A DNA stretch of 64,000 nt from Microbacterium schleiferi (GCF_020781975.1 NZ_JAJGNI010000002.1:62001-126000); one strand, 5' to 3'; counted from the stretch's first letter, positions 16,894 to 41,432 are shown. Translations and numbers: made by a program. The notes: generated by a model not told the origin, from the sequence alone.

Positions 16894-18285
16894 ATGGAGC
16901 TCCGCGACTACCTACACATCCTGCGCAAGAACTGGCTCATCATTCTTGCGTTGACGCTCGTCGGTGTGGGTGCCGCCGCCGCATATTCCCTGACGCGCAC
17001 GCCGCTGTATGAGGCCGAGAGCTCTGTCTTCGTCTCGACGCAGGCGGGCTCGGGAACCATTCAGGACCTGAACCAGGGATCGAACTTCTCCCTCGATCGG
17101 GTGCCGTCGTATGTGCTCGTCGCGACATCTCCGGTCGTACTCAACCCCGTCATCGACGACCTCGGTCTCGACACGACGGCAAGTCAGCTCGCAAAGCAGA
17201 TCTCGGTCTCATCGCCGTTGAACTCCGCGATCATCAACGTGTCGGTGCAGGATGCCGACCCCCAGCTGGCCGCCGACATCGCGAACGCCACCGCCGCGAG
17301 CCTGTCGGATGCCGTGGAAGAGATCGAGACGACGGCGGGACTCACCGCGAGCCCCGTGCGCCTGTCCGTCATCCGCCCGGCGCTGCCGTCGAGCGCTCCC
17401 GTGAGCCCGAACGTTCCGCTGAACCTCGCGCTCGGTGGGCTCATCGGTCTGGCCTTGGGTGTCGCGTTCGCCATCCTGCGCACTGTGCTCGACACCAAGG
17501 TGCGTACGCCGCGCGATGTCGCTCAGCTGACCGATCGTCCGATGATCGGCGTCATCCCCTTCGACCCGAAGGCGGCCGAGCGCCCGATCATCCTCGAAGC
17601 CGACCCCACGAACCAGCGCGCCGAGGCGTTCCGAGCCCTGCGCACCAACCTGCAGTTCATCGAGTTGGATGGCGGCCAGACGTTCGTCATCACCTCGAGC
17701 ATTCCCAGCGAGGGTAAGTCGACGACCGCGGTGAACCTCGCGATCGCTCTCGCGGACGCCGGCAAGCGCGTGGCCCTGCTCGACACCGATCTGCGCAAGC
17801 CGAAGGTCGCCGATTACCTCGGTATCGAGGGCGCGGTCGGGTTGACGGACGTCTTGATCGGGCGCGCGAAGGTCACCGATGTGATGCTCCCCTGGGGTCG
17901 CCGCCCTCTGTACGTGCTTCCCGCGGGCAAGGTACCGCCGAACCCGTCCGAACTCCTCGGTTCGTCGCAGATGAAGGCGCTCCTCGACGACTTCGTCAAC
18001 ACGTTCGATGTTGTGATCTGCGACGCTCCGCCGCTTCTTCCGGTCACGGATGCCGCGGTGCTGTCCCGACTCACCGCTGGCGCGATCGTCGTCACCGCTG
18101 CGGGTCGCACGACGACGCATCAGCTTGACGGTGCTCTCGAAGCACTTGAGACGGTCGGGGCGAAGGTCGCCGGTCTCGTGATGACGATGGCGCCGACAAA
18201 GGGGCCCGACTCGTACATGTACGGCTATGGGTATGGCTACGGGTACGGATACGGCTACGGGTACGGCCACTCCGACAAGAAGTAG
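16894..18285 (+). CDS. polysaccharide biosynthesis tyrosine autokinase (Wzc-like)
   Basis: A 463-residue co-polymerase and BY-kinase fused in one chain. An N-terminal Wzz domain is bounded by two membrane helices (LIILALTLVGVGAAAAYSL near residue 15 and LALGGLIGLALGVAFAIL near 180). The cytoplasmic kinase follows with Walker A SIPSEGKSTTAVNLA, Walker A' VALLDTDLRKPKV and Walker B VVICDAPPLLP. The C-terminal tail is a run of about nine Tyr-Gly pairs, the autophosphorylation cluster. It controls EPS chain length and export through phosphorylation cycles. Start ATG 16894 follows GAGAGG. It opens the EPS locus and reads toward the convergent cysC gene; no separate tyrosine phosphatase gene was seen in the window. 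Confidence 0.93.
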   Translation: MELRDYLHILRKNWLIILALTLVGVGAAAAYSLTRTPLYEAESSVFVSTQAGSGTIQDLNQGSNFSLDRVPSYVLVATSPVVLNPVIDDLGLDTTASQLAKQISVSSPLNSAIINVSVQDADPQLAADIANATAASLSDAVEEIETTAGLTASPVRLSVIRPALPSSAPVSPNVPLNLALGGLIGLALGVAFAILRTVLDTKVRTPRDVAQLTDRPMIGVIPFDPKAAERPIILEADPTNQRAEAFRALRTNLQFIELDGGQTFVITSSIPSEGKSTTAVNLAIALADAGKRVALLDTDLRKPKVADYLGIEGAVGLTDVLIGRAKVTDVMLPWGRRPLYVLPAGKVPPNPSELLGSSQMKALLDDFVNTFDVVICDAPPLLPVTDAAVLSRLTAGAIVVTAAGRTTTHQLDGALEALETVGAKVAGLVMTMAPTKGPDSYMYGYGYGYGYGYGYGYGHSDKK

Positions 18286-18337
18286 ACCGGCCACAACCGA
18301 GCGCAACGGCGCCCGAGCGAGCAGCGTAATCCGGCCC

Positions 18338-19435
18338 TCAGCGCGGGAGTGCAGCGACGATCTGGTCGACGGCGTCCTCGGGGCTCACCACACTGGCGTC
18401 GATCGCCAGATCGGCGTCGGTGGGCGTTTCGTAGGGGTCGCTGATACCCGTGAACTGCGGAATCTCGCCAGCACGCGCCTTGGCATAGAGGCCTTTGCGG
18501 TCGCGCGCTTCGCAGACCTCCAGGGGCGTGGAGACGTGGACCAGCATGAAGCGCCCGACGTTCTCGGCTCGCTCTCGCATCTCGGCACGCATTTCCGCAT
18601 ACGGAGCGATCGGCGCGCAGACAGCGATCCCGCCGTGCTTCGCGATCAGCGCCGCGACCCAGCCGATGCGGCGGACGTTCATGAGGCGGTCTTCGCGCGA
18701 GAAGCCGAGCTTGGACGACAGGATGAGTCGCACCTCGTCGCCGTCGAGCAGTGTGACCGTGCGGTCGTCCACCTCGCCGAGGCGTTCGGCCAGGAGCTTC
18801 GCGATCGTGGACTTGCCCGAGCCTGAGAGGCCGGTGAGCAGGATGACGAGACCGTCGCCGACCGCGCGCTCGGTGTCCCAGACCTCCACCTCGTCAGCGA
18901 CAAGCGCGTGGGCGGCTGCGGCAACAGCGTCACTCCAGTCACCCCGGGGCCGCAGCGCCGCATCGGGCGCGGGAAGGACCCGAACGTCGTAACCGGCAGC
19001 GAGAGCACGACGCACATCCCGGCTGAGCGCTTCCGCGTAGTGGCCGGTGTCCAGCACGACGAGCGGTCGTTGATCGAGTGAATTCCAGCGCGGGTCGTCT
19101 TCGCCGGGAAGGTCGCCCAGGACGACCACTGCGCGGGGCGCGTGCGAAGTCTGGGCGCCAATGCGACGGTCACGGTGCAGTTGGTGCCCAAAGGGACGAA
19201 GCTGAGTTACGGGTCCGACGAGCCATTCGCCCGCGGCGGCGCCATCGACCTCGACCGCGGCGAGGGGTGTGCCCTCCTGGTCGAGCAGTTCCACGGTTCC
19301 GCTCACGAGGGCCTCAGACGTCCGCAGGCGGCCTCCGCCGTCCTCCGACGCATAGGCGACCGATCCGAGGCCGCCGGCGAGCACGAGTTCAAGCTCGGCA
19401 ACTCCGGCCGGGCTAAGCGTGACGCGGGCGGTCAC
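18338..19435 (-). CDS. cysC: adenylylsulfate (APS) kinase with N-terminal extension
   Basis: A 365-residue protein whose last 180 residues are APS kinase: P-loop LLTGLSGSGKSTIAKLL, the DGDEVR substrate motif, LGFSREDRLMNVRRIGW and the lid motif. It phosphorylates APS to PAPS, the universal sulfate donor. The first 180 or so residues (GSVAYASEDGGGRLRTSEAL, then GTVELLDQEGTPLAAVEV) resemble the PUA-like N-terminal part of single-chain ATP sulfurylases but no sulfurylase active-site motif is visible; ATP sulfurylase activity is supplied by cysDN on the other strand. The GTG start overlaps the TauE/SafE stop by 4 bp, so it is coupled to the transporter. No cysH or sulfite reductase gene is nearby, which points to use in sulfation. 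Confidence 0.9.
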   Translation of the reverse strand: MTARVTLSPAGVAELELVLAGGLGSVAYASEDGGGRLRTSEALVSGTVELLDQEGTPLAAVEVDGAAAGEWLVGPVTQLRPFGHQLHRDRRIGAQTSHAPRAVVVLGDLPGEDDPRWNSLDQRPLVVLDTGHYAEALSRDVRRALAAGYDVRVLPAPDAALRPRGDWSDAVAAAAHALVADEVEVWDTERAVGDGLVILLTGLSGSGKSTIAKLLAERLGEVDDRTVTLLDGDEVRLILSSKLGFSREDRLMNVRRIGWVAALIAKHGGIAVCAPIAPYAEMRAEMRERAENVGRFMLVHVSTPLEVCEARDRKGLYAKARAGEIPQFTGISDPYETPTDADLAIDASVVSPEDAVDQIVAALPR

Positions 19436-20397: not shown

Positions 20398-20413
20398 GCG
20401 GTGCCCCCTCGTA

Positions 20414-20520: not shown

Positions 20521-21438
20521 TCACTCGGCAGCCTCGGTGAGTGTTCGCTCAGGCTCCTGCTCGCGTCGGGCGATCCGACGGTCGGTGAGCACGGCTTGCA
20601 CCGAGATCCACACCGCAGCCACCCAGAGCACGAGGACCCCGCCGAGCACCCACCACGTGAGAAGTCCTCCGGCCTGGTCAACGCCGAGCATGATCGTGCG
20701 AGTGTTGGTGAAGATGATCATCCCGCCCACGAGCGAGCCGAGCAGGCGCGGCGGCATGATGCGCACGAGCCAGGCGGCGAGAGGAGCTGCGATCAGGCCG
20801 CCGATGAGCAGTGCGAGGACCCAACCGAGGTCGAATCCTTGCGAGCCGAGGCCGATGAAGAAGCCGACGCTGGCCGAGATGGCCACGAGGAACTCGCTCG
20901 TGTCGATGGTGCCGATCACCTTTCGGGGCTCCATCCGTCCGCTGGCGAGAAGCGCGGGGGTTCCGACCGGACCCCATCCGCCACCGCCGGTGGCATCGAT
21001 GAAGCCACCGAACAGGCCCAGTGGCGCGAGGAACCGCAGTCGAAGCGGCCTGGAGCCATCGGGCTTCGGGATCGCCCGGAAGGTGAACCGCACGAGCACA
21101 TAGAAGCCCAGAGCGAGCAGGATGCCGCTCATCAGAGGTCGCGCCGCATCGCTCGAGAGGTTCGAGAGCAGCGTCGCGCCGAGGAAGGCTCCGATCGCGC
21201 CGGGGATGCCGACCTTGGCGACGACTTTCCAGTCGACGTTGCCGAATCGCCAGTGAGACAGACCGGACGCGAGGGTCGTCCCGATCTCGGCAAGGTGCAC
21301 GGATGCGCTCGCTGCCGCGGGACTCGCGCCGATGAGCAGCAGAAGGGTCGTGGAGGTGACGCCGTAGGCCATGCCCAGCGCGCCGTCGACGAGTTGGGCG
21401 GCGAAACCGACGACCGCAAGCAGGAGCAGGGTTTGCAT
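20521..21438 (-). CDS. TauE/SafE (TSUP) anion transporter, second
   Basis: A 305-residue multi-helix membrane protein, TauE/SafE family, with the paired Gly-rich motifs VDGALGMAYGVTSTTLL (near residue 20) and FIDATGGGGWGPVGTPALL (near 145). It is only distantly like the first TSUP protein, so the two are not recent duplicates. Start ATG 21438 follows GGGAAGAGG. Its upstream region contains the dyad shared with the first TSUP gene. It is a single-gene unit between the Rrf2 gene and the TSUP-cysC operon, all read leftward. The probable cargo is sulfate, sulfite or an organosulfonate. Confidence 0.9.
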   Translation of the reverse strand: MQTLLLLAVVGFAAQLVDGALGMAYGVTSTTLLLLIGASPAAASASVHLAEIGTTLASGLSHWRFGNVDWKVVAKVGIPGAIGAFLGATLLSNLSSDAARPLMSGILLALGFYVLVRFTFRAIPKPDGSRPLRLRFLAPLGLFGGFIDATGGGGWGPVGTPALLASGRMEPRKVIGTIDTSEFLVAISASVGFFIGLGSQGFDLGWVLALLIGGLIAAPLAAWLVRIMPPRLLGSLVGGMIIFTNTRTIMLGVDQAGGLLTWWVLGGVLVLWVAAVWISVQAVLTDRRIARREQEPERTLTEAAE

Positions 21439-21543: not shown

Positions 21544-22014
21544 TCAGTCGCCGAGAGAAGAGGCGTTCAACCAGGCTCGTGGCTCGTCGGCCAGGGCTTG
21601 CACCGACGCCGGCAGGCTCCCCGCAGCAAGATCGGCGATCGTTGTCGCCTCGAGAACAGCACGCACGTTTGCCCGCAGTGCGACCCACAGGGCAGCGAGC
21701 GTTTCCTGCTCCTGGACGTAGTCGACATCCGAGGGTCGCGCGTCGCGCACGTACACGAGCGGTCCGTCAACGGCGCGGATGACGTCAGCCACCGAAACGG
21801 TCGAGGCGGGCAATGCGAGCCGATAGCCGCCGGCCGCTCCGCGACGACTGGTGACGATTCCAGCCCGCCGCAGCGAAGTCAGGATGCCTTCGAGGAAGCT
21901 GCCCGGAATCCCCTGCGCCTCGGCTACGGCATCTGCCGAAATGACCTCGTCGCCGGCCTGCGCGATCGCGACCGTCGCTCGGACGGCATAGTCCGCTCGG
22001 GCTGAGATGCGCAT
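21544..22014 (-). CDS. Rrf2-family transcriptional regulator, cysteine-free
   Basis: A 156-residue Rrf2 regulator. The winged helix fills the N-terminal half (MRISARADYAVRATVAIAQA, then GIPGSFLEGILTSLRRAGIV and SRRGAAGGYRLA with the family GGYRLA wing). It contains no cysteine at all, so it cannot ligate an iron-sulfur cluster like IscR or NsrR; it is more like CymR, the sulfur-metabolism repressor that senses cysteine supply through partner proteins. Being placed between the TSUP/cysC genes and cysQDN, it is the obvious candidate regulator of both arms. A CATAAT box ends 5 nt before its ATG, so its message is probably leaderless. Confidence 0.88.
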   Translation of the reverse strand: MRISARADYAVRATVAIAQAGDEVISADAVAEAQGIPGSFLEGILTSLRRAGIVTSRRGAAGGYRLALPASTVSVADVIRAVDGPLVYVRDARPSDVDYVQEQETLAALWVALRANVRAVLEATTIADLAAGSLPASVQALADEPRAWLNASSLGD

Positions 22015-22019
22015 ACCCG

Positions 22020-22045
22020 ATTATGGCCTGTTACGTACGCGTAAC
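22020..22045. promoter_or_regulatory. rrf2 -10 box and adjacent palindrome
   Basis: CATAAT on the minus strand (22025-22020) precedes the rrf2 start codon by 5 nt. Directly upstream is an inverted repeat GTTACG/CGTAAC (22030-22045, 4-nt spacer). It is unlike the dyad at the TSUP promoters, so it may be bound by another factor or be an autoregulatory site of different strength. Confidence 0.4.
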
Positions 22046-22129
22046 GCGGAAGAGACCCGGCGTTCGTTTGACGACACACGCTTACGGTAAGGTCGCTCAG
22101 CGTACGGTCAGCCACTGGGAAAGCGACCA

Positions 22130-22897
22130 ATGACACAAGCACCACTGAGCGATTCATCGCTCGCAGAATCCATCGCACGTACGGCCGCCGAAGTCCTGAT
22201 CACCACTCGCCGAGAGTTCCTCGGCGATGACCTTCGCGCGCTCAAAGACGCCGGGGATGCCGCGGCGCAGGCACATATCGCCGGGCGCCTGTACGACGCC
22301 GTGCCCGACGACGCGGTGCTGAGCGAAGAGGCCAAGGACTCAGCCGAGCGGCTCTCGGCTGAGCGTGTCTGGATCATCGATCCGCTCGACGGTACGCGGG
22401 AGTTCTCCGAGAGCCGTGACGACTGGGCAGTGCATGTCGCGCTGTGGCAAGACGGCGAGCTCGCTCTCGGGGCTGTCGCGCTCGGCGGGCCCGAGACTTT
22501 GCTCTCGAGCGCCACCGTTCCCGCTCCCCCGGCGCGCCCTGAAGGTCCGATCCGCATCGCGGTGAGCCGGTCGCGGCCGCCCGAGATCGTCAACGCCGTC
22601 GCCGAACAGCTCGGAGCAACCCTCGTGGCGATGGGGTCGGCGGGAGTCAAGGTGTGTGCCGTCGTGACCGGCGAAGTGGATGCTTATGTCCACGGCGGCG
22701 GACAATACGAGTGGGATTCAGCGGCGCCGGTCGCTGTCGCTCGCGCCGCCGGCCTGCACACGTCGCGGCTCGATGGAAGCCCTCTCGTCTACAACCAAGA
22801 AAATCCCTACCTCCCCGACCTCGTCGTCTGCCGCCCGGAGTTCGCGGCGCAGATTCTCGAGGCCATCGCGAACGCTGAACGGAAGGCATCGGAGTGA
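22130..22897 (+). CDS. cysQ: 3'(2'),5'-bisphosphate nucleotidase, CysQ-like
   Basis: A 255-residue member of the inositol monophosphatase-like family. The metal-binding motifs are present: Glu in LSEEAKD, the signature WIIDPLDGTREFSESRDDW near residue 85, and EWDSAAPVAVA near the C-terminus. CysQ hydrolyses PAP, the by-product of every PAPS-dependent sulfotransferase, to AMP and so relieves product inhibition. It is the first gene of the cysQ-cysD-cysN operon and overlaps cysD by 4 bp. The position directly upstream of ATP sulfurylase genes and near three sulfotransferase genes makes PAP recycling a more likely role than inositol phosphate hydrolysis. Confidence 0.9.
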   Translation: MTQAPLSDSSLAESIARTAAEVLITTRREFLGDDLRALKDAGDAAAQAHIAGRLYDAVPDDAVLSEEAKDSAERLSAERVWIIDPLDGTREFSESRDDWAVHVALWQDGELALGAVALGGPETLLSSATVPAPPARPEGPIRIAVSRSRPPEIVNAVAEQLGATLVAMGSAGVKVCAVVTGEVDAYVHGGGQYEWDSAAPVAVARAAGLHTSRLDGSPLVYNQENPYLPDLVVCRPEFAAQILEAIANAERKASE

Positions 22898-23805
22898 CAT
22901 CGCCTAATCAGTACGCGCTCAGCCAACTCCAGATTCTGGAAGCTGAGTCGATCCACATCATCCGCGAGGTTGTCGCGCAGATGGAGCGCCCCGCGCTGCT
23001 CTTCTCGGGCGGCAAGGACTCCATCGTGCTGCTGCACCTCGCGATGAAGGCCTTCCACCCGGCGCCGATCCCATTCCCGATCGTGCACGTCGACACGGGG
23101 CACAACTTCCCCGAGGTTCTCGAGTTCCGTGACTCGATCGTCGAGAAGCACGGCATCCGCCTCGTCGTGGGATCGGTGCAGGAGGCGATCGACAAGGGCA
23201 CGGTTCGCGAAGAGCCCAACGGTTCGCGCAACCGCATCCAGACTCCGGTGCTGCTCGACACGATCGAGAAGAACCAGTTCGACGCCTGCATGGGCGGCGC
23301 CCGCCGCGATGAAGAGAAGGCGCGCGCCAAGGAGCGCGTGTTCTCGTTCCGCGACGAGTTCGGCCAGTGGGACCCGAAGAACCAGCGCCCCGAGCTCTGG
23401 AGCCTTTACAACGGCCGCGTGCACCCGGGCGAGAACATCCGCGTGTTCCCCCTGTCGAACTGGACTGAGCTCGACATTTGGCAGTACATCGGAGAATACG
23501 AAGTCGACATCCCGTCGATCTACTTCGCTCACGACCGTGACGTGTTCGTGCGCAACGGCATGCTGTTCGCTGCGAACGAGTTCTGCGCTCCCAAGGACGA
23601 CGAGGTCGTCGAGACGCGCAAGGTGCGCTACCGCACCGTCGGTGACGCAACCTTGACGGCAGCGGTGGCATCGGATGCCGACACTGTCGAGCTCATCATC
23701 GAAGAAGTGGCAGCGACGCGCGTCACCGAACGCGGCGCGACCCGCGGTGACGACAAGGTCAGCGAGGCCGCGATGGAAGACCGGAAGAAGCAGGGGTACT
23801 TCTAA
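22894..23805 (+). CDS. cysD: sulfate adenylyltransferase subunit 2
   Basis: A 303-residue ATP pyrophosphatase subunit of ATP sulfurylase, which makes APS from sulfate and ATP. The PP-loop FSGGKDSIVLLHLAMKA stands near residue 30, followed by HVDTGHNFPEVLEFRD, the GGARRDEEKARAKER segment and RVFPLSNWTELDIWQYI, all diagnostic. GTG start at 22894 overlaps the cysQ stop (GTGA). The length is normal. It works as a heterodimer with the CysN GTPase encoded 2 nt downstream. Confidence 0.97.
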   Translation: MTSPNQYALSQLQILEAESIHIIREVVAQMERPALLFSGGKDSIVLLHLAMKAFHPAPIPFPIVHVDTGHNFPEVLEFRDSIVEKHGIRLVVGSVQEAIDKGTVREEPNGSRNRIQTPVLLDTIEKNQFDACMGGARRDEEKARAKERVFSFRDEFGQWDPKNQRPELWSLYNGRVHPGENIRVFPLSNWTELDIWQYIGEYEVDIPSIYFAHDRDVFVRNGMLFAANEFCAPKDDEVVETRKVRYRTVGDATLTAAVASDADTVELIIEEVAATRVTERGATRGDDKVSEAAMEDRKKQGYF

Positions 23806-23807
23806 AC

Positions 23808-29944: not shown

Positions 29945-30120
29945 CGACATTCTCCCTAGGTTTGGCAAGTAGCTGACGGCTACCTCGGCACCAGATACTC
30001 CGCGATTCTTAGAATGCTTCTATGACCATGCTACGAGACTCGGCGTGGGGCCAGTCCCGCCGCCGAACTCGCGGTATTCAGGAAATACGGGCGTTACGAC
30101 GCAGCCAATAGAATCACCGG

Positions 30121-33228: not shown

Positions 33229-34506
33229 TTAGGAATGCCGCTCTATGTCCTTCGACTGTCTAAGCCAAATCAAGTGGAGCGAGACTAGCGTCACAATTGC
33301 GACGAGTGGCAACGTCACCGCCAGTCCCCACGCACCCCACAGATACCCTGCGAAGGCACACAAAAAAAGTCGGAGCAGCGCTGAAGCGATCATGCTTACC
33401 CCGACCCCGAGTGGCACGCTCGTCGCATAGAACCAACCCAGATAGGTCTGGCTGACTGCGATGAGCGCGGCGGCAGCGATTACACCCCCGATAATCGGGG
33501 CCGCGGCGCGGAACTCGTCACCGAGCACGATCTGGGTAACCCAAGGGGAAGCCGGCACCGCAGCCAAGAAGACCGCAGCCAAAACCAGCGCTACTCTTCG
33601 CGAACCCTTGAAAATCGCCAGTCGGCGGCTGCTCGGGCCTTCGCCTGCCATCTCTGGCACGAATACTTGCATCAAAGTTGTGATGACGAGGTTCATCGGC
33701 GCTGCGAGCCGCGTCGATGCGCCGTAGAGACCAGCGAGAACGGCCCCGCTGGTCGCGCCAACAACCGCCGTGCCAAGCTGTGAGAGATTCGGGCCGAGTC
33801 CTGCGAGGAACATCGTGTGGTTCGACCTGAGCAGTAGGGGAAGTGAGGTGGGTCTCCCTGCGCGGCGGAAGAGCAGCGCGAAGCAGGCAACAACTCCGAT
33901 GAGCCCACCGACGAGCAGACAGACGATTGCAGCCTCGAACGTAAGGCCGAATGCAAACGGAACGAGCGCGAGCAGCCTGCGAGTGAGAAGGAGAGTATTG
34001 GCAGCGATCGTACGCTTCTCACCTTGTTGAATAGAAAGCGATGTGTCGCCCAGCGCGTCCCCGGCGGCAGCAAGGACACTGACGACAACGAGGAGACGCG
34101 CGAAGACATCCAGACCCATCACTGCCGTAACTGCGAGGGCGACCGCAAGCGAGCCCAACAGGGCGATGCTCTTCGACACCACCAAGGCGCCGAAAAGTCC
34201 CCGCGTGTCAGTGAGGTTTGCTGCGGCAAGAGCCCTCGTCGTGAGTCCGTAGTCGAGAACTCCAAAGGCGAACATGCACGTCGCATATGTGGCTGCATAC
34301 ACGCCGAAATCGGCCACACCAAGCGAACGAGCGAGGAATGCGAGAAGAAGCGCCTGGGCTAGAGAAGCAGAAACTCGTCCACTCAGGGAGATGGCGGTTC
34401 GACGGAAGATGCGCTTGCGGCCTACCACTCGCGCACTCGTTCCGTCGCGCTGAGGCGCCCCGCACGGTGGGAACGGGGGCTGCTCCGCATCCCCAGTCGT
34501 GTGCAC
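33229..34506 (-). CDS. Wzx-like flippase (polysaccharide biosynthesis protein)
   Basis: A 425-residue membrane protein of the MATE/MOP-type polysaccharide exporters with about twelve hydrophobic helices. The N-terminal helix pattern SGRVSASLAQALLLAFLARS followed by LGVADFGVYAATYATCMFAF is characteristic of Wzx proteins. It would move the lipid-linked repeat unit across the membrane for Wzy to polymerise. The first 35 residues are hydrophilic and poorly conserved, so the true start may be a little downstream. It is the first gene of a leftward pair with a sulfotransferase, which suggests sulfation before flipping. Confidence 0.87.
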   Translation of the reverse strand: MHTTGDAEQPPFPPCGAPQRDGTSARVVGRKRIFRRTAISLSGRVSASLAQALLLAFLARSLGVADFGVYAATYATCMFAFGVLDYGLTTRALAAANLTDTRGLFGALVVSKSIALLGSLAVALAVTAVMGLDVFARLLVVVSVLAAAGDALGDTSLSIQQGEKRTIAANTLLLTRRLLALVPFAFGLTFEAAIVCLLVGGLIGVVACFALLFRRAGRPTSLPLLLRSNHTMFLAGLGPNLSQLGTAVVGATSGAVLAGLYGASTRLAAPMNLVITTLMQVFVPEMAGEGPSSRRLAIFKGSRRVALVLAAVFLAAVPASPWVTQIVLGDEFRAAAPIIGGVIAAAALIAVSQTYLGWFYATSVPLGVGVSMIASALLRLFLCAFAGYLWGAWGLAVTLPLVAIVTLVSLHLIWLRQSKDIERHS

Positions 34507-34722: not shown

Positions 34723-35406
34723 TTGCTTTCCGAGCAGTACCGATGGATATTCATCCACCCACCAAAGACCGCCGGTACCTCTATTTCCGAGGCATTGTTC
34801 CCGTACTCAGAGGACAAGAGGCTTCGGATGCCGGGACAGGCATCCGACGACAACTTCGAGATTCGCGGTCCGATCACCCCGCATAAGCACGTCACGGTTC
34901 GGTTCTACGAGACAATGCTCGGTCACCGCGCCGCGGACTTCCTGCTAATCGGCGGCCTCCGGCACCCTTTGGATCGCATGCTGAGCCTGTACTACTACCC
35001 AGGCAACTGGATTAAGGACCGGATTATCGGCGGGAAACGGCTTAGCGCGCGCGGCCTGCATCGATTGGACCCCCTGCTAATTCGTAGGGAGACCCCTTAC
35101 TGGGACGAGAGCCGCTTCCTGCGTATGGTTGCCGAGAAGCCCACGATGAGTGATTTCTACCGGAGGGCTGACGGATCGGTTCGGTTGCCCGATGTCCGGC
35201 TAACCGCTAGCACCATGACGACTGCCACCAGGACAATCGCTCAACATCTGGGAATCGATGATCTGCGGATTCCTCACATCAATCGATCGCTTCGGCCGGG
35301 CGAGGTGGCGCGACTGTCGAAGAGCCGGGAACTGGCTGAGCTCGTCGCCACAGCTCACGCTGAGGACTATAACCTGTTCGACTACTCCCTCTTGCCTGGT
35401 AACTAG
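34723..35406 (+). CDS. Sulfotransfer_2-family protein (third sulfotransferase)
   Basis: A 227-residue protein from a TTG start at 34723 preceded by AGGAA. The PAPS loop WIFIHPPKTAGTSISEALF and the 3'-phosphate motif LIGGLRHPLDRMLSLYYY are those of the Sulfotransfer_2 family (carbohydrate sulfotransferases such as chondroitin 4- and heparan 2-O-types). The C-terminal part is a helical domain ending LFDYSLL. It stands alone between the flippase and gmd, with 216 and 132 bp gaps. It is the third non-homologous sulfotransferase within 4 kb. Confidence 0.82.
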   Translation: MLSEQYRWIFIHPPKTAGTSISEALFPYSEDKRLRMPGQASDDNFEIRGPITPHKHVTVRFYETMLGHRAADFLLIGGLRHPLDRMLSLYYYPGNWIKDRIIGGKRLSARGLHRLDPLLIRRETPYWDESRFLRMVAEKPTMSDFYRRADGSVRLPDVRLTASTMTTATRTIAQHLGIDDLRIPHINRSLRPGEVARLSKSRELAELVATAHAEDYNLFDYSLLPGN

Positions 35407-35538: not shown

Positions 35539-36567
35539 ATGACAAAGCGCGCACTCATCACTGGAATTACAGGACAGGACGGTTCGTACCTCGCGGAACT
35601 CCTGCTCTCGAAGGGCTACGAAGTGCACGGCATTATCCGCCGAGCCTCGACGTTCAACACGCATCGGATCGACCACCTCTACACCGACCCCCACAACCCC
35701 GATGCGAAGCTCTTCCTGCACTACGGCGACCTGAGCGACGGAGCACGGCTCGTCACACTGCTCATGGAGATCGAGCCCGACGAGGTCTACAACCTGGCGG
35801 CTCAGTCACACGTGCGCGTATCCTTCGATGAACCCGAGCACACCGCCGACACCACAGGGACCGGCACGATCCGTCTCCTCGAGGCGGTCCGTATGGCTGG
35901 CATCCGTCCTCGGTTCTACCAGGCATCCACTTCCGAGCTTTACGGCGCAACCCCGCCGCCGCAGTCCGAAACAACGCCGTTCTACCCGCGGTCCCCTTAC
36001 GCAGCGGCAAAGCTTTACAGCTTCTGGATCACGAAGAACTACCGCGAGGCATACGACATGTTCGCGGTGAACGGCATCCTTTTCAACCACGAATCCCCCC
36101 GCCGTGGTGAGACCTTCGTGACCCGCAAGATCACGCGCGCCGTCGCCCGCATCAAGGCAGGACTCCAGAAGGACATCTACCTCGGCAACCTCGACTCCAT
36201 CCGCGACTGGGGCTATGCCGCCGAGTACGTCGAAGGAATGTGGCGGATGCTGCAGGTCGACGAGCCCGAGGACTTCGTACTCGCCACGGGTGTCGGCTAC
36301 ACCATCAAGGACTTCCTCGAGACCGCCTTCGGTCACGTTGGACTCGACTGGCAGGAGTACGTCAAGTTCGACGAGCGCTACCTGCGCCCGACCGAAGTCG
36401 ACGCGCTGATCGGCGACCCGACGAAGGCAGGCGAGAAACTCGGCTGGACTCCCACGATCGATGGGAAGGAACTGGCCAAGTTGATGGTTGATGCCGACGT
36501 GGAAGCACTGGAAAAGGGCGCCGACTGGATCGACACCGTCAAGCTCGCGTCGTGGGGGACGAAGTGA
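35539..36567 (+). CDS. gmd: GDP-mannose 4,6-dehydratase
   Basis: A 342-residue short-chain dehydrogenase-type enzyme that converts GDP-mannose to GDP-4-keto-6-deoxymannose. The N-terminal motif [20 protein letters not shown], the catalytic [14 protein letters not shown] region and the Y-x3-K of [12 protein letters not shown] are all present, and the length equals the family norm. It begins about 130 bp after the third sulfotransferase gene and precedes the GDP-fucose synthase, so together they supply GDP-L-fucose. The downstream gap holds a dispersed repeat. Confidence 0.97.
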
Positions 36568-36570
36568 TGC

Positions 36571-36601
36571 GTTTCGCCTCGCTTCGCTCGCTCAACGACC
36601 G
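36571..36601 (+). repeat. dispersed REP-like sequence, copy 2
   Basis: gtttcgcctcgcttcgctcg followed by ctcaacgaccg, in the gap between gmd and the GDP-fucose synthase gene; matches the reverse complement of 16770-16798. A degenerate half copy (ggcttcgctcgttcaacggc) follows at about 36606-36626. Confidence 0.5.
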
Positions 36602-36643
36602 GACGGGGCTTCGCTCGTTCAACGGCCGGGGAATGGCTTACTG

Positions 36644-37627
36644 ATGGGGACTGCGGTGGACGGAGTCCAGTACGCGCCGGGGGAACTCGACCGCGACGCG
36701 ACGTTCTACGTCGCGGGGCACCGAGGGCTCGTTGGGTCCGCGATCTGGCGCAAGCTTGAGGCATCCGGGTTCGAGAACATCGTCGGCAAGACATCAGCCG
36801 AACTCGACCTCAAGGATCGGGATGCGGTGTTCGGGTACATGAGCGAGGTTAAGCCGAAGTACGTCGTGCTTGCAGCTGCGAAGGTTGGCGGCATCCTGGC
36901 GAACTCCACCTACCCGGTCGATTTCTTGAGCGACAACATGCGCATTCAGACCAATGTGCTGGATGCCGCGCTCGCGAACGATGTGGAGCGCGTGCTGTTC
37001 CTTGGGTCGTCGTGCATCTATCCGAAGCTCGCCGAGCAGCCCATCCGCGAGGACTCGCTGCTCACCGGGCATCTCGAGCCGACCAATGACGCGTATGCGA
37101 TCGCGAAGATCGCGGGCATCCTGCACACGCAGGCCGTGCGCCGTCAGTATGGCCTACCGTGGATCTCGGCCATGCCCACCAACCTCTATGGGCCGAACGA
37201 CAACTTTTCGCCGAAGGGGTCGCACGTGCTGCCGGCGCTGATCCGCCGGTATGACGAGGCAGCCAAGTCGGGCGCGGCAACCGTGACCAACTGGGGCACG
37301 GGCACACCGCGCCGTGAGTTCTTGCACGCCGATGACATGGCGGACGCGTGCCTCCATCTGATGGAGCACTACGACGGGCCTGACCAGGTCAACGTCGGCA
37401 CAGGTTCAGATATCACGATCCGCGAGATCTCGGAGACGATCGCATCCGTCACGGGCTTTGACGGTGAGACGGAGTGGGACACTTCTAAACCCGATGGCAC
37501 ACCGCAGAAGCTGCTGGATGTCTCCAAGCTCGCCGAGGCAGGCTGGACAGCTCAGATCTCCCTGGAAGAAGGCCTCGAGCGCACTGTGGCTTGGTATCAC
37601 GATCACGTCGAGTCGATCCGCGAGTAG
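36644..37627 (+). CDS. fcl: GDP-L-fucose synthase
   Basis: A 327-residue epimerase-reductase. Motifs are FYVAGHRGLVGSAIWRKL (NADP site), VLFLGSSCIYPKLAEQP (catalytic Ser and Cys), the Y-x3-K in NDAYAIAKIAGI and the catalytic His region in DNFSPKGSHVLPALI. It converts GDP-4-keto-6-deoxymannose to GDP-L-fucose, completing the path begun by Gmd. The ATG at 36644 gives a 15-residue N-terminal extension before the first strand. It ends 2 nt before a small Dabb gene. Confidence 0.95.
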   Translation: MGTAVDGVQYAPGELDRDATFYVAGHRGLVGSAIWRKLEASGFENIVGKTSAELDLKDRDAVFGYMSEVKPKYVVLAAAKVGGILANSTYPVDFLSDNMRIQTNVLDAALANDVERVLFLGSSCIYPKLAEQPIREDSLLTGHLEPTNDAYAIAKIAGILHTQAVRRQYGLPWISAMPTNLYGPNDNFSPKGSHVLPALIRRYDEAAKSGAATVTNWGTGTPRREFLHADDMADACLHLMEHYDGPDQVNVGTGSDITIREISETIASVTGFDGETEWDTSKPDGTPQKLLDVSKLAEAGWTAQISLEEGLERTVAWYHDHVESIRE

Positions 37628-37629
37628 AC

Positions 37630-37920
37630 GTGTTCCGGCACATTGTGCTCTTCCGGGTGCACGACGATGCTTCCGATGCCGAGCTAGAACAGGCGGTTTC
37701 GGCTTTACGGGGACTCGGCGACGAGGCCGAGGCTGTGTCGTGGAACGTTGAAGTCTCGCTGGACTCACGCAAGGGTCGGGTGATCGTCGAAGACACGACC
37801 TTCGCGGATGCCGCAGCCTTCGACCGCTTCCGCGCGCATCCGGCACACATCGCTATCGCTGACCAGATGGCGCGGATCTCGGACTGGTGGGTCGGTGAGT
37901 ATCACACGCGCGACAACTGA
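37630..37920 (+). CDS. Dabb-family (stress-responsive A/B barrel) protein
   Basis: A 96-residue dimeric alpha/beta-barrel protein. FRHIVLFRVHDDASDAELEQ at the start and FDRFRAHPAHIAIADQMARI in the second half match the Dabb domain, which has the typical HIVLF strand and the HP-x-H segment. The GTG start lies 2 nt after the fucose synthase stop. Members have varied or unknown functions; a role in EPS synthesis is not implied beyond co-transcription. Confidence 0.85.
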   Translation: MFRHIVLFRVHDDASDAELEQAVSALRGLGDEAEAVSWNVEVSLDSRKGRVIVEDTTFADAAAFDRFRAHPAHIAIADQMARISDWWVGEYHTRDN

Positions 37921-37983: not shown

Positions 37984-39549
37984 GTGACGGCTGACGTTCA
38001 GCACGGCACGAATGCAACGGGGCATCGCGCACACGGCGAAGAAACTTCCGCGGGGCCGCGCCCCGTAACGACCTCAACAGGTTCGGTCGTCATCCCTGCG
38101 AGGCGTGCCGACGCGAGGTGGCAGCTGCTCTTCAGCCGACGCTTGTGGATCAGTGACGCCGTCGTGCTCATCTGGGTCGTGTTCGGCACTCAGATCTTCT
38201 GGTTCGGCACAGGCAACGCCGAACTCGCGCTTCTGCAAGACCACCGCTTCAGCGATGTTTCCTACTGGGCGCTTTCCACGATTCTTGTCGTGGTGTGGTT
38301 CTGGGCGCTCTCGCTCGCCGACTCGCGAAGCCACCGTGTCATCGGGGCCGGAAGCGCAGAATACATCCGAATTGTGGACTCGAGCGTCCGGCTGTTCGGG
38401 GTGATCGCGATCATCGCGTTCCTCTTCCAGATCAACATCGCCCGCGGCTTCCTCTTGATCAGCCTGCCCCTCGGTGTCGCCGTGCTCATTCTCGTGCGGT
38501 GGCTGTGGCGGCAGTGGCTGATTGCCAAGCGCCGGAGCGGTGCCTATATGCACCGCGTCCTTCTGGTCGGCTCGGAGAGCTCCGTGGCGCAGATCGCGCA
38601 CGAGCTGCAGCGCACGCCCCGCGCTGGCTACCTCGTCGCCGGCGCATGCGTGCCGAGCGGCAAGGTCGGTGACACGATCTCGGGAACCACGATCCCGATC
38701 ATGGGCAACGTCAACGCCGTCGAGAGGGCGCTGCTGGCGACCGGCGCCGACACCGTTGCGGTCACGAGCGCCGACGATCTTCCGCCCGCGAAGGTCAAGC
38801 AGATTTCGTGGGGACTCGAGGCAGGCAAGCAGCACCTCGTGATCGCCCCCAGCATCGCCGACATCGCCGGCCCACGCATCCACATTCGTCCCGTATCGGG
38901 CCTCCCCTTGATTCACGTCGAGACGCCTCGGTTTTCGCTCGGTCAGCGGGTCACGAAGCGAGCCTTCGATCTCGTCGCATCTGTTCTGGGCGTCATTGTC
39001 ATCAGCCCACTCCTACTTCTGCTGACCGTGGCAATCATGCTGACCTCGCCCGGGCCCGTACTGTTCCGTCAGGAGCGAGTCGGGCGCGGCGGCAAGACGT
39101 TCAAGATGATCAAGTTCCGTTCGATGGTGCCCAACGCCGAACAACTGCTCGAGAGGCTGCTGCAAGAGCAACGCGACTCGGGCAACGAGGTGCTGTTCAA
39201 GATGAAGAACGATCCGCGCGTGACACGCGTCGGACGTTTCATGCGCAAGTACAGCCTCGACGAGCTGCCGCAGCTGTTCAATGTCATCGGTGGGTCGATG
39301 TCGCTCGTCGGGCCGCGACCGCCGCTACCCCGTGAGGTCGAGCAGTACGCCGAGCACGTCCACCGCCGATTCCTGATGAAGCCCGGTATCACCGGCCTCT
39401 GGCAGGTCAGTGGTCGATCGTCTCTGTCATGGGACGAGAGCGTTCGTCTCGACCTTTCTTATGTCGAGAACTGGACGCTCGTGGGAGATCTCACCATCCT
39501 GCTCAAGACGGCCCGGGCCGCGCTTGCGCCAGGCGAGACGGCTCACTGA
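37984..39549 (+). CDS. undecaprenyl-phosphate sugar-1-phosphate transferase (WbaP-like)
   Basis: A 521-residue polyprenyl glycosylphosphotransferase that starts each EPS repeat unit by moving a hexose-1-phosphate to undecaprenyl phosphate. Four N-terminal membrane helices are followed by a Rossmann-like CoA-binding-type domain (VLLVGSESSVAQIAHELQ) and the catalytic C-terminal domain, with the membrane re-entrant helix near residue 330, RQERVGRGGKTFKMIKFRSM, the catalytic Asp-Glu in SLDELPQLFNVIGG (near 425) and SLVGPRPPLPREVEQY. GTG start. It overlaps the convergent Nudix-like gene by 7 bp. A second, degenerate copy is at 50730. Confidence 0.93.
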   Translation: MTADVQHGTNATGHRAHGEETSAGPRPVTTSTGSVVIPARRADARWQLLFSRRLWISDAVVLIWVVFGTQIFWFGTGNAELALLQDHRFSDVSYWALSTILVVVWFWALSLADSRSHRVIGAGSAEYIRIVDSSVRLFGVIAIIAFLFQINIARGFLLISLPLGVAVLILVRWLWRQWLIAKRRSGAYMHRVLLVGSESSVAQIAHELQRTPRAGYLVAGACVPSGKVGDTISGTTIPIMGNVNAVERALLATGADTVAVTSADDLPPAKVKQISWGLEAGKQHLVIAPSIADIAGPRIHIRPVSGLPLIHVETPRFSLGQRVTKRAFDLVASVLGVIVISPLLLLLTVAIMLTSPGPVLFRQERVGRGGKTFKMIKFRSMVPNAEQLLERLLQEQRDSGNEVLFKMKNDPRVTRVGRFMRKYSLDELPQLFNVIGGSMSLVGPRPPLPREVEQYAEHVHRRFLMKPGITGLWQVSGRSSLSWDESVRLDLSYVENWTLVGDLTILLKTARAALAPGETAH

Positions 39550-40037: not shown

Positions 40038-40121
40038 GACTTCATTGTCTCGCGACCGCTCTCGAGTTTCACGGCGCCCATGCGTCACTTTCACGTCACA
40101 TACGCCCCCTAGGCTTGGCGC

Positions 40122-41432
40122 GTGAAGCTTTCTGTCATCGGATGCGGATACCTCGGAGCCGTCCACGCAGCGGCCATGGCCTCCATCGGACACGAGGTCG
40201 TCGGTATCGACGTAGACCAGCGCAAGATCGATGCCCTCTCGAAAGGTGAAGCTCCGTTCTTCGAGCCCGGACTGCCTGAGATTCTTGCCGAAGGTGTGGC
40301 ATCCGGTCGCCTGCGCTTCACGACCGACATGGCCGAAGCTCGCGGCGCGAAGGTGCACTTCATTGGCGTCGGCACCCCTCAGCAGCGGGACGGATACGGC
40401 GCCGACCTCACCTACGTGAACGCGGCTGTCGATGGGCTCATCCCCTACCTCAGCGAGGGCGACATCGTCGCGGGCAAGTCGACGGTTCCCGTCGGCACCG
40501 CAGCTGAGCTGACGCCTCGCGTTGAAGCCGCAGGCGCGACGCTCGTGTGGAACCCCGAGTTCCTGCGCGAAGGCTGGGCCGTACAAGACACAATCGATCC
40601 CGACAGGCTCGTCGTGGGCGTTCCGTCAACGGATGTTGGAACCGCCGCTGTCGATATCCTGAAAGAGGTGTACGCGCCGCCGGTCGCGAAGGGCACGCCG
40701 TTCATCGTCACCGACCTCGCCACCGCTGAACTCGTGAAGGTTTCGGCCAACGCGTTCCTGGCGACCAAGATCTCGTTCATCAACGCGATGGCTGAGATCG
40801 CCGAGGCCGTCGGCGCTGACGTCACGCAGCTCGCCGACGCGATCGGTCATGACGACCGGATCGGGCGCAAGTTCCTCGGCGCAGGAATCGGTTTCGGTGG
40901 CGGATGCCTCCCCAAAGACATCCGCGCCTTCTCCGCCCGCGCCGAAGAACTCGGCCGCGGCGAATCGATCGCGTTCCTGCGCCAGATCGACGAGATCAAC
41001 ATGCGGCGTCGCGACCGGGCGGTGCAGCTCGTGGTCGACGGACTTGGCGGATCCGTGTTCAAGAAGAACGTCACCGTACTCGGTGCCGCGTTCAAGCCGC
41101 ACAGTGACGACATCCGCGACTCCCCCGCACTCGACGTCGCCGTGCGCCTGCACGGCCTCGGCGCATGGGTCACGGTCACTGACCCCGAGGCGATCGCGAA
41201 CGCTCAGGCGAAGCATCCGCAGCTCAACTACGTCGCCGACCGCGACGAAGCCCTGCGCGCAGCCGACGCCGTGGTTGTCGTCACCGAGTGGGACGAGTAC
41301 CGTCGGCAGATGCCGCCCGAGCACGTCTCGACCCTCACCGAGGGACGCGTGATCGTCGACGGACGCAACTGCCTGGATGCCGCCGCCTGGCGCGCCGCCG
41401 GCTGGACCTACTACGGCATGGGGCGCCCGTAG
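40122..41432 (+). CDS. ugd: UDP-glucose 6-dehydrogenase
   Basis: A 436-residue UDP-glucose/GDP-mannose dehydrogenase. The NAD-binding start is LSVIGCGYLGAVHAAAMASI, the central helix has LVKVSANAFLATKISFINAM, and the catalytic Cys is in GFGGGCLPKDIRAF; the C-terminal UDP-binding domain begins at VLGAAFKPHSDDIRDSPA. It makes UDP-glucuronate for the EPS. The GTG start is 6 nt after a TAGGCT promoter box, so the transcript is probably leaderless. It closes the EPS block; a toxin-antitoxin pair follows. Confidence 0.96.
   Translation: MKLSVIGCGYLGAVHAAAMASIGHEVVGIDVDQRKIDALSKGEAPFFEPGLPEILAEGVASGRLRFTTDMAEARGAKVHFIGVGTPQQRDGYGADLTYVNAAVDGLIPYLSEGDIVAGKSTVPVGTAAELTPRVEAAGATLVWNPEFLREGWAVQDTIDPDRLVVGVPSTDVGTAAVDILKEVYAPPVAKGTPFIVTDLATAELVKVSANAFLATKISFINAMAEIAEAVGADVTQLADAIGHDDRIGRKFLGAGIGFGGGCLPKDIRAFSARAEELGRGESIAFLRQIDEINMRRRDRAVQLVVDGLGGSVFKKNVTVLGAAFKPHSDDIRDSPALDVAVRLHGLGAWVTVTDPEAIANAQAKHPQLNYVADRDEALRAADAVVVVTEWDEYRRQMPPEHVSTLTEGRVIVDGRNCLDAAAWRAAGWTYYGMGRP

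What the first reader, a model, noticed from the sequence alone, without database searches (positions are those of the whole stretch)
16894..41432. Wzx/Wzy exopolysaccharide locus with a built-in PAPS module and three sulfotransferases: a probable sulfated EPS of an actinobacterium
Seen: APS kinase, both ATP sulfurylase subunits, PAP phosphatase, two TauE/SafE transporters and an Rrf2 regulator lie between the EPS tyrosine autokinase and the first glycosyltransferase, and cysN ends only 4 nt before that glycosyltransferase. Three sulfotransferases of different type (31317, 32329, 34723) lie among the glycosyltransferases, the polymerase and the flippase. Known: PAPS is the donor for carbohydrate sulfation and PAP must be removed by CysQ. 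Inference: the whole set makes, uses and recycles PAPS to sulfate the repeat unit. Sulfated EPS is well known in algae and marine animals but is rarely described in Gram-positive soil bacteria.
Basis: partly seen in the sequence, partly recalled or inferred. Interest (0 to 1): 0.88.

Follow-up and report, generated by a model that had tools for sequence, protein, structure and literature searches.

The report
Sulfated slime locus, Gram-positive bacterium
In this likely Microbacteriaceae bacterium one gene cluster joins the machinery for exporting a sugar polymer to a full sulfate-activation set and three predicted sulfotransferases, and searches of its whole genome found no sulfate-reduction genes, so the activated sulfate likely serves only to decorate the polymer, which probably carries fucose and glucuronic acid.

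Summary
The locus (16894-41432) encodes a Wzz/tyrosine kinase, Wzy, Wzx, a priming transferase, three glycosyltransferases and a likely fourth, Gmd+Fcl (GDP-fucose), Ugd (UDP-glucuronate), CysC, CysD, CysN, CysQ, two TauE permeases, an Rrf2 regulator and three sulfotransferases. The 3.02 Mb genome (listed 100% complete) has one PF01507 protein (this CysD, no CysH), no sulfite reductase, and its PF13469/PF00685 sulfotransferase matches all lie in this locus. Among 100 genomes of the same family, this one included, PF13469 sulfotransferases (6) occur only where a sulfate-activation set is not tied to CysH (6 of 10; 0 of 90 others). Microbacterium sp. HD4P20 has a matching locus plus a separate assimilatory set. 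Best reading: a built-in PAPS cycle likely sulfates the lipid-linked repeat unit before Wzx/Wzy. Gram-negative sulfated-capsule clusters carry the same PAPS genes, and a 2026 paper proposes a sulfated polysaccharide in Actinoplanes. New here is a self-contained version in a Gram-positive without detectable sulfate assimilation. No chemistry exists for this strain.

The parts
16894..18285 (+). Wzz-type chain-length determinant fused to tyrosine autokinase (C-terminal YG repeats)
   Evidence: PF02706 40 bits, TIGR01007 164 bits (cut-off 108); 67% identical in HD4P20 locus
18338..19435 (-). CysC, APS kinase, with ~200-aa N-terminal part without a Pfam match seen; likely start GTG overlapping the TauE1 stop
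   Evidence: TIGR00455 185 bits (cut-off 138.7); P-loop GLSGSGKST, DGDEVR, FTGI present; the one strong APS kinase of the genome
19432..20397 (-). TauE/SafE permease 1, predicted sulfate/sulfur-anion transporter
   Evidence: PF01925 170 bits; found beside CysC/CysQDN in several relatives
20521..21438 (-). TauE/SafE permease 2
   Evidence: PF01925 150 bits; no match in the HD4P20 locus
21544..22014 (-). Rrf2-family regulator, nearest equivalog model CymR (under its cut-off)
   Evidence: PF02082 114 bits; CymR model 85 bits, cut-off 195; no match in the HD4P20 locus
22015..22129 (.). divergent intergenic region, likely shared promoter region; inverted repeat GTTACG-4-CGTAAC at 22030-22045
   Evidence: the repeat was not found in 12 relatives' upstream regions, so its role is untested
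22130..22897 (+). CysQ, predicted PAP (3'-phosphoadenosine-5'-phosphate) phosphatase
   Evidence: PF00459 113 bits; CysQ model TIGR01331 4.4e-32, under its cut-off; SEE, DPLDGTREF and WDSAA motifs
22894..23805 (+). CysD, ATP sulfurylase small subunit
   Evidence: TIGR02039 445 bits (cut-off 396.6); the only PF01507 match of the genome
23808..25058 (+). CysN, ATP sulfurylase GTPase subunit
   Evidence: TIGR02034 580 bits (cut-off 336); G-box motifs intact
25063..26253 (+). GT4-type glycosyltransferase 1
   Evidence: PF00534 89 bits
26256..27374 (+). GT4-type glycosyltransferase 2
   Evidence: PF00534 79 bits
27367..28848 (+). Wzy repeat-unit polymerase
   Evidence: TIGR04370 42 bits (cut-off 40); PF14296 21.0 bits, under cut-off; 11 hydrophobic segments; 50% in HD4P20
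28829..29968 (-). likely GT-B glycosyltransferase without Pfam match
   Evidence: only one chance-level Pfam row (UvrD_C_2, 13.4 bits); fold search top hit WaaG, E 2.1e-10, but model mean pLDDT 58.6 and TM ~0.36; 52-53% in HD4P20
30121..31293 (+). GT4-type glycosyltransferase 3
   Evidence: PF00534 71 bits
31317..32303 (+). ST1, sulfotransferase (Sulfotransfer_3-like)
   Evidence: PF13469 26.0 bits, just under the cut-off 27; 202 homologues, many of the 120 listed with PF13469; PxSGTT and RxP...S motifs near-invariant
32329..33213 (-). ST2, sulfotransferase, heparan 3-O-sulfotransferase-like
   Evidence: PF13469 40.7 and PF00685 36.7 bits, both over cut-off; PDB: heparan 3-O-sulfotransferase 3A1 1.5e-11; 49% in HD4P20; E34 invariant in 16 aligned sequences, itself included
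33229..34506 (-). Wzx-type flippase
   Evidence: PF01943 25.8 bits, under the cut-off 28.2; 60% in HD4P20
34723..35406 (+). ST3, sulfotransferase (Sulfotransfer_2-like), rare family
   Evidence: PF03567 23.3 bits, cut-off 22; 2 relatives found by the word-based protein search; HPPKTAGTS and RHPLDRMLS motifs in the window protein; fold model failed
35539..36567 (+). Gmd, GDP-mannose 4,6-dehydratase
   Evidence: TIGR01472 515 bits (cut-off 415); 88% in HD4P20
36488..37627 (+). Fcl, GDP-L-fucose synthase (frame listed from its first start)
   Evidence: NF047922 453 bits, next model 66; cut-off 500; 85% in HD4P20
37591..37920 (+). Dabb-domain protein, role unknown
   Evidence: PF07876 47 bits; 51% in HD4P20
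37984..39549 (+). polyprenyl-phosphate sugar-phosphotransferase (priming enzyme)
   Evidence: TIGR03025 427 bits (cut-off 296); 69% in HD4P20
40122..41432 (+). Ugd, UDP-glucose 6-dehydrogenase (UDP-glucuronate)
   Evidence: TIGR03026 403 bits (cut-off 190), the UDP-glucose-specific models under cut-off; 82% in HD4P20

Best explanation
This locus likely makes a sulfated exopolysaccharide by the Wzx/Wzy route, fed by its own sulfate-activation (PAPS) cycle. Predicted steps: TauE permeases bring in sulfate; CysDN turns sulfate and ATP into APS; CysC phosphorylates APS to PAPS; ST1-ST3, in which a crude scan finds no membrane segment, move sulfate from PAPS to sugars of the undecaprenyl-linked repeat unit in the cytoplasm; CysQ removes the product PAP; Wzx flips, Wzy polymerises, and the Wzz/tyrosine kinase sets chain length. 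Gmd/Fcl and Ugd would supply GDP-fucose and UDP-glucuronate, so the polymer probably carries fucose, glucuronate and sulfate. Shown by search: gene content and motifs; no CysH or sulfite reductase match; no PF13469/PF00685 sulfotransferase match elsewhere in the genome. Inferred: enzyme activities, substrates, sulfation sites, order of steps, transporter substrate and regulation.
For: Gene content. Own genome: one PF01507 match = this CysD, 0 PF01077, one strong APS kinase = this CysC, the 2 PF13469 and 1 PF00685 matches all in the locus. 100 genomes of the same family, the window's own included: cysD in 16, cysH in 7, the same 7 have sulfite reductase; PF13469 in 6, all 6 among the 10 genomes with a cysD not tied to cysH, 0 of the 6 with only the assimilatory set, 0 of the 84 without cysD; Fisher 6.7e-6 (cysD or not), 1.8e-7 (untied cysD or not), 4.2e-5 and 1.8e-6 with the own genome left out; in 5 of 6 the sulfotransferase lies within about 10 kb of cysD. 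HD4P20: matching locus Wzz-PGT-CysC-TauE-CysQDN-Wzy-ST2-Wzx-GTs-second ST-Gmd-Fcl-Ugd and a separate CysD+CysH+sulfite reductase on another contig. 36 named genomes: sulfotransferase within 25 kb of this cysD type in 18, 1.2 expected. Post hoc: where this cysD is free of assimilation, because cysH is absent (4) or another cysD sits next to cysH (5), 9 of 9 have one nearby, against 9 of 27 of the rest (p = 0.001). ST2 resembles heparan 3-O-sulfotransferases. Literature: Cobetia cluster with cysN/C, cysD, cysQ, permease and sulfotransferase plus a solved sulfated structure (passages); in Actinoplanes, deleting one of two sulfotransferase genes (wpsH) or the neighbouring sulfate adenylyltransferase/APS-kinase-family gene deforms sporangia; marine Microbacterium aurantiacum EPS contains Glc, Man, Fuc, GlcA and is said to contain sulfate (passages of reviews).
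Against: No chemistry for this strain. ST1 and Wzx score just below Pfam cut-offs, ST3 just above; ST3's fold could not be modelled. The same CysDN clade is the only cysD in Microbacterium indicum, halotolerans and suaedae, which have cysH, sulfite reductase and no PF13469 match, so there it must serve assimilation. 4 of the 10 family genomes with untied cysD have no PF13469 match (G008, G030, G094, G097) and in G016 it is 113 kb away. In the 36 named genomes, absence of cysH alone against a nearby sulfotransferase is not significant (4/4 against 14/32, p = 0.10); G116 has extra cysD matches not next to cysH and no sulfotransferase near. Deleting the other Actinoplanes sulfotransferase gene (wpsB) left sporangia normal by SEM, with fewer spores released. 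Another Microbacterium EPS ('Microbactan') is described without fucose or sulfate in the passages read. The PF03567 search of the genome missed even ST3 and rang in no control, so other type-2 sulfotransferases elsewhere are not excluded. The donor could sulfate something else, such as a glycolipid.
Confidence: 0.83

Rival explanations
1. The cys genes are an ordinary assimilatory module that happens to sit inside an EPS locus; the sulfotransferases are minor or inactive.
For: CysC-TauE-CysQDN of the same clade occurs without any PF13469 match in M. indicum, M. halotolerans and M. suaedae, which have cysH and sulfite reductase. The Rrf2 regulator resembles CymR of cysteine metabolism, under that model's cut-off.
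Against: No CysH and no sulfite reductase match in the window's own genome. CysN of the family's cysH-linked operons falls in a separate clade. HD4P20 keeps both an assimilatory set and the EPS-locus set.
Confidence: 0.06
2. PAPS is made for sulfating something other than the secreted polymer, for instance a glycolipid, a wall-linked glycan or a small metabolite; the EPS genes are only neighbours.
For: Substrates of ST1 and ST3 are unknown; neither has a convincing relative among solved structures. Mycobacterial and rhizobial sulfotransferases act on lipo-oligosaccharides (named in PMC8205485, passage).
Against: The three genes lie between glycosyltransferase, Wzx and sugar-nucleotide genes; ST2 is heparan-sulfotransferase-like and directly follows Wzy in HD4P20.
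Confidence: 0.08
3. A decayed or mosaic locus: sulfation genes present but the polymer is not sulfated under any condition.
For: The glycosyltransferase/sulfotransferase part has lower GC (60.9%, 25063-35406) than its flanks (67-68%), as in recently acquired cassettes.
Against: All frames are open and the motifs looked for are intact; 15 of the window's proteins have a match of 49-90% identity in the HD4P20 locus.
Confidence: 0.03

Closest known systems
Cobetia marina KMM 1449 sulfated capsule cluster (PMC11766843; passages read)
   Same: Sulfotransferase gene plus cysN/C, cysD, cysQ and a sulfate permease inside a polysaccharide cluster; sulfated structure solved
   Different: Gram-negative, ABC-transporter (Kps) export; CysN/CysC fused; rhamnose/mannose polymer
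Vibrio sp. KMM 8419 sulfated capsule cluster (PMC11641403; passages read)
   Same: Second copies of cysC, cysN, cysD plus sulfotransferases in the cluster; that paper calls PAPS genes plus sulfotransferases in a polysaccharide cluster a hallmark
   Different: Gram-negative, ABC transporter; the cys genes are second copies, whereas the window genome has one set and no reduction pathway found
Actinoplanes missouriensis wps-1 (PMC13390465, June 2026; outline, passages and section 16 read)
   Same: Actinomycete Wzx/Wzy cluster with two sulfotransferases and, next to it, a sulfate adenylyltransferase/APS kinase-family gene whose deletion severely harms sporangia
   Different: In the passages read, that neighbour is the only sulfate-activation gene named; studied for sporangium formation; sulfation also awaits proof
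Synechan xss cluster, Synechocystis 6803 (PMC8205485; passages read)
   Same: Wzx/Wzy cluster with two sulfotransferases of different subfamilies; sulfated EPS shown chemically
   Different: Cyanobacterium; the words PAPS and cysC do not occur in its main text; rhamnose, mannose, galactose, glucose
Microbacterium aurantiacum FSW-25 EPS (Sran 2019, original not read; passages of reviews PMC7024282, PMC9409974, PMC10381399)
   Same: Anionic EPS of a related genus with Glc, Man, Fuc, GlcA, and sulfate mentioned by one review
   Different: Chemistry without genes in what I read; not shown to come from a locus of this type

Membership tests
Wzx/Wzy-dependent polysaccharide pathway | Priming phosphotransferase, GTs, Wzx flippase, Wzy polymerase, Wzz/co-polymerase | tested here: met
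   TIGR03025, TIGR04370 and TIGR01007 over cut-off; GTs; Wzx only by a sub-cut-off PF01943 match, seven hydrophobic segments in a crude scan and 60% identity to the HD4P20 counterpart
Sulfated-polysaccharide gene cluster (PAPS genes plus sulfotransferases in a polysaccharide cluster, as worded in PMC11641403) | PAPS synthesis genes within the cluster | tested here: met
   CysC, CysD, CysN over cut-off, CysQ by best match, at 18338-25058
Sulfated-polysaccharide gene cluster (PAPS genes plus sulfotransferases in a polysaccharide cluster, as worded in PMC11641403) | Sulfotransferase genes within the cluster | tested here: met
   ST2 over cut-off in PF13469 and PF00685, ST3 over cut-off in PF03567, ST1 just under PF13469
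Sulfated-polysaccharide gene cluster (PAPS genes plus sulfotransferases in a polysaccharide cluster, as worded in PMC11641403) | Product carries ester sulfate | not testable with these tools
   needs purified EPS
PAPS-dependent carbohydrate sulfotransferase | 5'-phosphosulfate loop and 3'-phosphate site (motif roles recalled) | tested here: met
   ST1 PxSGTT: S 117/118, G 117/118, T 118/118; R 120/120, S 120/120. ST2 K12 42/42, R 45/45, S 45/45 (gapped rows left out). ST3: motifs read in the window protein; of its 2 relatives one lacks the N-terminus
PAPS-dependent carbohydrate sulfotransferase | Catalytic base of 3-O-sulfotransferases (Glu in an ExxFF motif; identity of the base recalled) | tested here: inconclusive
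   E34 invariant in 16 aligned ST2-type sequences picked from 53 hits plus HD4P20; matches the Glu of 3rnl (KEAHFF); shifted by one residue against 1t8t in the HMMER alignment
Assimilatory sulfate reduction operon | CysH (APS/PAPS reductase) | tested here: not met
   Only one PF01507 match in the genome, which is CysD; controls rang in 14 of 14
Assimilatory sulfate reduction operon | Sulfite reductase | tested here: not met
   0 PF01077 matches; controls rang in 11 of 14

The most novel reading that the evidence does not exclude
In this bacterial family sulfate activation has been cut loose from sulfur nutrition: the cell cannot reduce sulfate at all, yet keeps a complete PAPS cycle whose only use is to build a fucoidan- or glycosaminoglycan-like sulfated coat. 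Related CysQDN-plus-sulfotransferase cassettes across actinomycetes would make sulfated surface glycans a widespread, overlooked trait of Gram-positive bacteria.
Probability: 0.45. Interest if true: 0.78.

Novelty: new variant of a known kind. Interest (0 to 1): 0.62.

Why it matters
Two papers seen here still state that bacterial sulfated polysaccharides are exclusive to cyanobacteria (PMC13390465, PMC8205485; passages), although marine Gram-negatives are now shown to make them (PMC11641403, PMC11766843). A Gram-positive locus with its own PAPS cycle, in a genome without detectable sulfate reduction, makes the question directly testable: sulfate taken up by such a strain should appear in the polymer and not in protein. 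It also gives a genomic marker (sulfate activation not tied to CysH, sulfotransferase nearby) for finding more producers, and an enzyme set (CysC/D/N/Q, heparan-type ST2) that might help to make sulfated glycans in Gram-positive hosts.

Tried and rejected
Structure prediction of ST3 with 3 sequences gave pLDDT 36 and was not searched. The ORF 28829 model was weak (pLDDT 58.6) and its GT-B matches have TM ~0.36, so it is named only as likely. ST1 and ST3 found no convincing solved relative. An Rrf2 operator was looked for in the divergent region: one 6+6 inverted repeat in the window, nothing alike in 12 relatives; dropped. Promoter scan: 0 sigma-70-like sites, 2.9 expected; uninformative. The idea that this CysDN clade is itself sulfation-specific was rejected: three Microbacterium genomes with cysH and sulfite reductase have it as their only cysD without a PF13469 match. 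The PF03567 search of the genome was uninformative. Strain name HD4P20 found no paper. Passages of PMC12736910, PMC11430787, PMC5858383 and PMC4189415 added nothing for the case.

What was left out of counts. None of the 5 Micromonospora genomes tested had a sulfotransferase near cysD, so 18 of 36 would probably fall with the full set. In one search the coordinates were typed in; split matches of one frame were only partly merged by hand, so the 119 sulfotransferase places are approximate; the genome count is not affected. The 9-of-9 test was thought of after seeing the data. For one search 39 loci were chosen by hand; L097 gave no full CysN and was dropped, so 38 loci plus the window are in the tree. 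In one search, 18 of the 36 genomes were chosen. cysD and cysH were told apart by match length and neighbours, not by an experiment or a tree. Literature searches; searches found nothing.

Full report
What is there. The region 16894-41432 holds a complete-looking Wzx/Wzy exopolysaccharide set with a sulfate-activation module inside it. Minus strand: Rrf2 regulator, TauE2, TauE1, CysC. Plus strand, diverging from the same 115-nt gap: CysQ, CysD, CysN, GT1, GT2, Wzy, with overlaps or gaps of a few nucleotides (CysN to GT1 4 nt). Then a likely GT-B transferase (28829-29968, minus), GT3, ST1, ST2 and Wzx (minus), ST3, Gmd, Fcl, Dabb, the priming phosphotransferase and Ugd. Gmd passes its NCBIfam cut-off; Fcl is by far best matched by the GDP-L-fucose synthase model (453 bits, cut-off 500; next model 66). 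GC falls to 60.9% over 25063-35406 against 67-68% in the flanks, as is common for exchangeable polysaccharide cassettes.

Organism. The nearest CysN in named genomes is that of Microbacterium sp. HD4P20 (90%), and CysN of same-family genome G076 groups tightly with that of a Frigoribacterium MAG, so the family is very likely Microbacteriaceae.

The genome (3,018,995 bases, 34 contigs, completeness listed as 100) has one PF01507 match, the CysD here, no PF01077 match while 11 of 14 controls ring, and one strong APS kinase, the CysC here; a second APS-kinase match of 20.4 bits covers 44 of 152 positions and is probably another P-loop protein. Hence no CysH and no sulfite reductase were found: sulfate activated here cannot be reduced by the known assimilatory route. 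Both PF13469 matches (ST2 over the cut-off, ST1 under it) and the one PF00685 match of the genome lie in this locus. The PF03567 search missed even ST3 and rang in no control, so it says nothing.

Family-wide test. In 100 genomes of the same family, the window's own included, PF01507 occurs in 16 and PF01077 in 27. By match strength and two repeats in one frame, 7 of the 27 hold a sulfite reductase; the other 20 have only weaker matches (79-94 bits), all but one in frames of about 860-975 aa, which I take for nitrite reductase NirB (label recalled). The 7 genomes with sulfite reductase are exactly the 7 with cysH. Nine genomes have cysD without cysH, and G028 has a second cysD about 28 kb from its cysH operon: 10 'untied' sets. 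PF13469 sulfotransferases occur in 6 of 100, all 6 within those 10; 0 of 6 in genomes with only the assimilatory set; 0 of 84 without cysD. Fisher p = 6.7e-6 for cysD against none, 1.8e-7 for untied against the rest, 0.034 for untied against assimilatory-only; without the window's own genome 4.2e-5, 1.8e-6 and 0.044. The genomes span 85 genera, but relatedness is not corrected for. In 5 of 6 the sulfotransferase is within about 10 kb of cysD; in G016 it is 113 kb away. Four untied genomes (G008, G030, G094, G097) show no PF13469 match, so their PAPS use is unexplained.

Wider actinomycetes. A PF13469 sulfotransferase lies within 25 kb of cysD in 18 of 36, against 1.2 expected from the number of sulfotransferases and genome size. 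Four of the 36 have cysD but no cysH; all four have a nearby sulfotransferase, three lack any PF01077 match and one has a single NirB-like one; against 14 of 32 with cysH this is not significant (p = 0.10). Five further genomes (G100, G125, G127, G130, G135) have another cysD within 1 kb of cysH, so that the window-type cysD is a spare set; all five have a nearby sulfotransferase. Together 9 of 9 'free' sets against 9 of 27 others (p = 0.001), a comparison chosen after the fact; G116, with extra cysD matches not next to cysH, has none nearby. The four without cysH are MAGs of unstated completeness. A priming phosphotransferase lies just upstream of CysQDN in many of these loci, for example in Kineosporia, Microbispora, Kribbella and Arthrobacter.

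The matching locus. Microbacterium sp. HD4P20 carries, in one stretch, Wzz (67%), priming enzyme (69%), CysC (56%), TauE1 (74%), CysQ (66%), CysD (89%), CysN (90%), Wzy (50%), ST2 (49%), Wzx (60%), two glycosyltransferases, the GT-B ORF (52%), another PF13469 sulfotransferase (106 bits), Gmd (88%), Fcl (85%), Dabb (51%) and Ugd (82%). ST1, ST3, TauE2 and Rrf2 gave no match there. On another contig it has CysD, CysH and sulfite reductase side by side. So one species keeps two sets, and the window's species keeps only the one in the EPS locus.

History of the module. In a CysN tree of 38 chosen loci plus the window, the cysH-linked CysN of seven family genomes form a clade apart from the window type (no support values examined). 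But M. indicum, M. halotolerans and M. suaedae carry the window type as their only cysD, together with cysH and sulfite reductase and without PF13469. The module thus probably serves assimilation in some lineages and sulfation in others; its presence alone does not prove sulfation. What does the work here is the absence of the reductive half.

Sulfotransferases. ST2 matches heparan sulfate 3-O-sulfotransferase 3A1 at 1.5e-11 and N-sulfotransferase more weakly; its K12, R92, S100 and E34 are conserved. ST1 belongs to a large family with PxSGTT and RxP...S motifs near-invariant. ST3 is a rare protein (2 relatives in a search limited to shared words) with IHPPKTAGTS and RHPLDRMLS motifs; its assignment rests on 23.3 bits against a cut-off of 22 and these motifs. 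None of the three shows a hydrophobic segment in a crude scan, which suggests cytoplasmic action on the lipid-linked repeat unit before flipping; this order is inferred, and signal peptides were not tested by a dedicated program.

Known work. PMC11641403 (Vibrio) and PMC11766843 (Cobetia) describe sulfated capsules with solved structures and clusters holding PAPS genes plus sulfotransferases; the first calls this combination a hallmark (passages). PMC13390465 (June 2026; outline, passages and one section read) proposes that Actinoplanes wps-1 makes a sulfated polysaccharide, with two sulfotransferases: deleting wpsH deforms sporangia, deleting wpsB leaves them normal by SEM but lowers spore release, and deleting the adjacent sulfate adenylyltransferase/APS-kinase-family gene severely damages sporangia. 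PMC8205485 describes synechan (passages). [quoted passage not shown] original not read). Another Microbacterium EPS, Microbactan, is described with glucose, uronic acids and N-acetylglucosamine, with no word of fucose or of sulfate in it in the passages read (PMC5858383). No title listed in the searches is on genes for sulfated EPS in Microbacteriaceae; they cover only the held open-licence library.

Verdict. It is a new variant of a known kind: the Gram-negative 'PAPS genes plus sulfotransferases in a capsule cluster' design, here in a Gram-positive Wzx/Wzy locus of an organism in which no other use for activated sulfate was found.

Noticed in passing
L098 (G046:C2:11900-31899) 7641-11520: In a small (2.0 Mb) family member a different, long CysN (637 aa) and CysD lie next to a Gmd 76% identical to the window's, with a PF13469 sulfotransferase about 10 kb away and no cysH: possibly an independent sulfated-fucose locus.
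   Followed up: partly
L095, L096, L097, L101, L102 (genomes G008, G016, G030, G094, G097): cysD without cysH or a PF01077 match; no sulfotransferase found near it (G016 has one 113 kb away, the other four show no PF13469 match). What their activated sulfate is for is unexplained.
   Followed up: partly
L100 11726-17200, L099, L103, L032, L051: A second conserved arrangement in the family: CysQ-CysD-CysN directly followed by a sulfotransferase; in four of the five (not L103) a Wzz/tyrosine-kinase-like gene lies nearby. In L100 there are also an APH-like kinase, an acyltransferase-SGNH protein and a Wzy_C-like protein.
   Followed up: partly
window 9629-16673: Sugar-type ABC transporter (binding protein, ATPase, permease) with two GFO/IDH/MocA dehydrogenases and a xylose-isomerase-like protein, likely an inositol or sugar uptake operon just upstream.
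   Followed up: no
window 28829-29968 (-): Protein without Pfam match, 52-53% identical in HD4P20, with a GT-B-like model: probably an undescribed branch of glycosyltransferases.
   Followed up: partly
window 22030-22045: Inverted repeat GTTACG-4-CGTAAC in the gap between the Rrf2 and CysQ genes; a candidate regulator site, not conserved in 12 relatives.
   Followed up: partly
L113 (G109:C261:1-20000): A 29-kb MAG contig (Actinomycetes, Prado026) with CysQDN, a priming enzyme, and five PF13469 sulfotransferase matches, in a genome with no cysH or PF01077 match.
   Followed up: partly
window 41870-46847: PIN-domain, DUF222 and VWA-domain genes right after the EPS locus.
   Followed up: no
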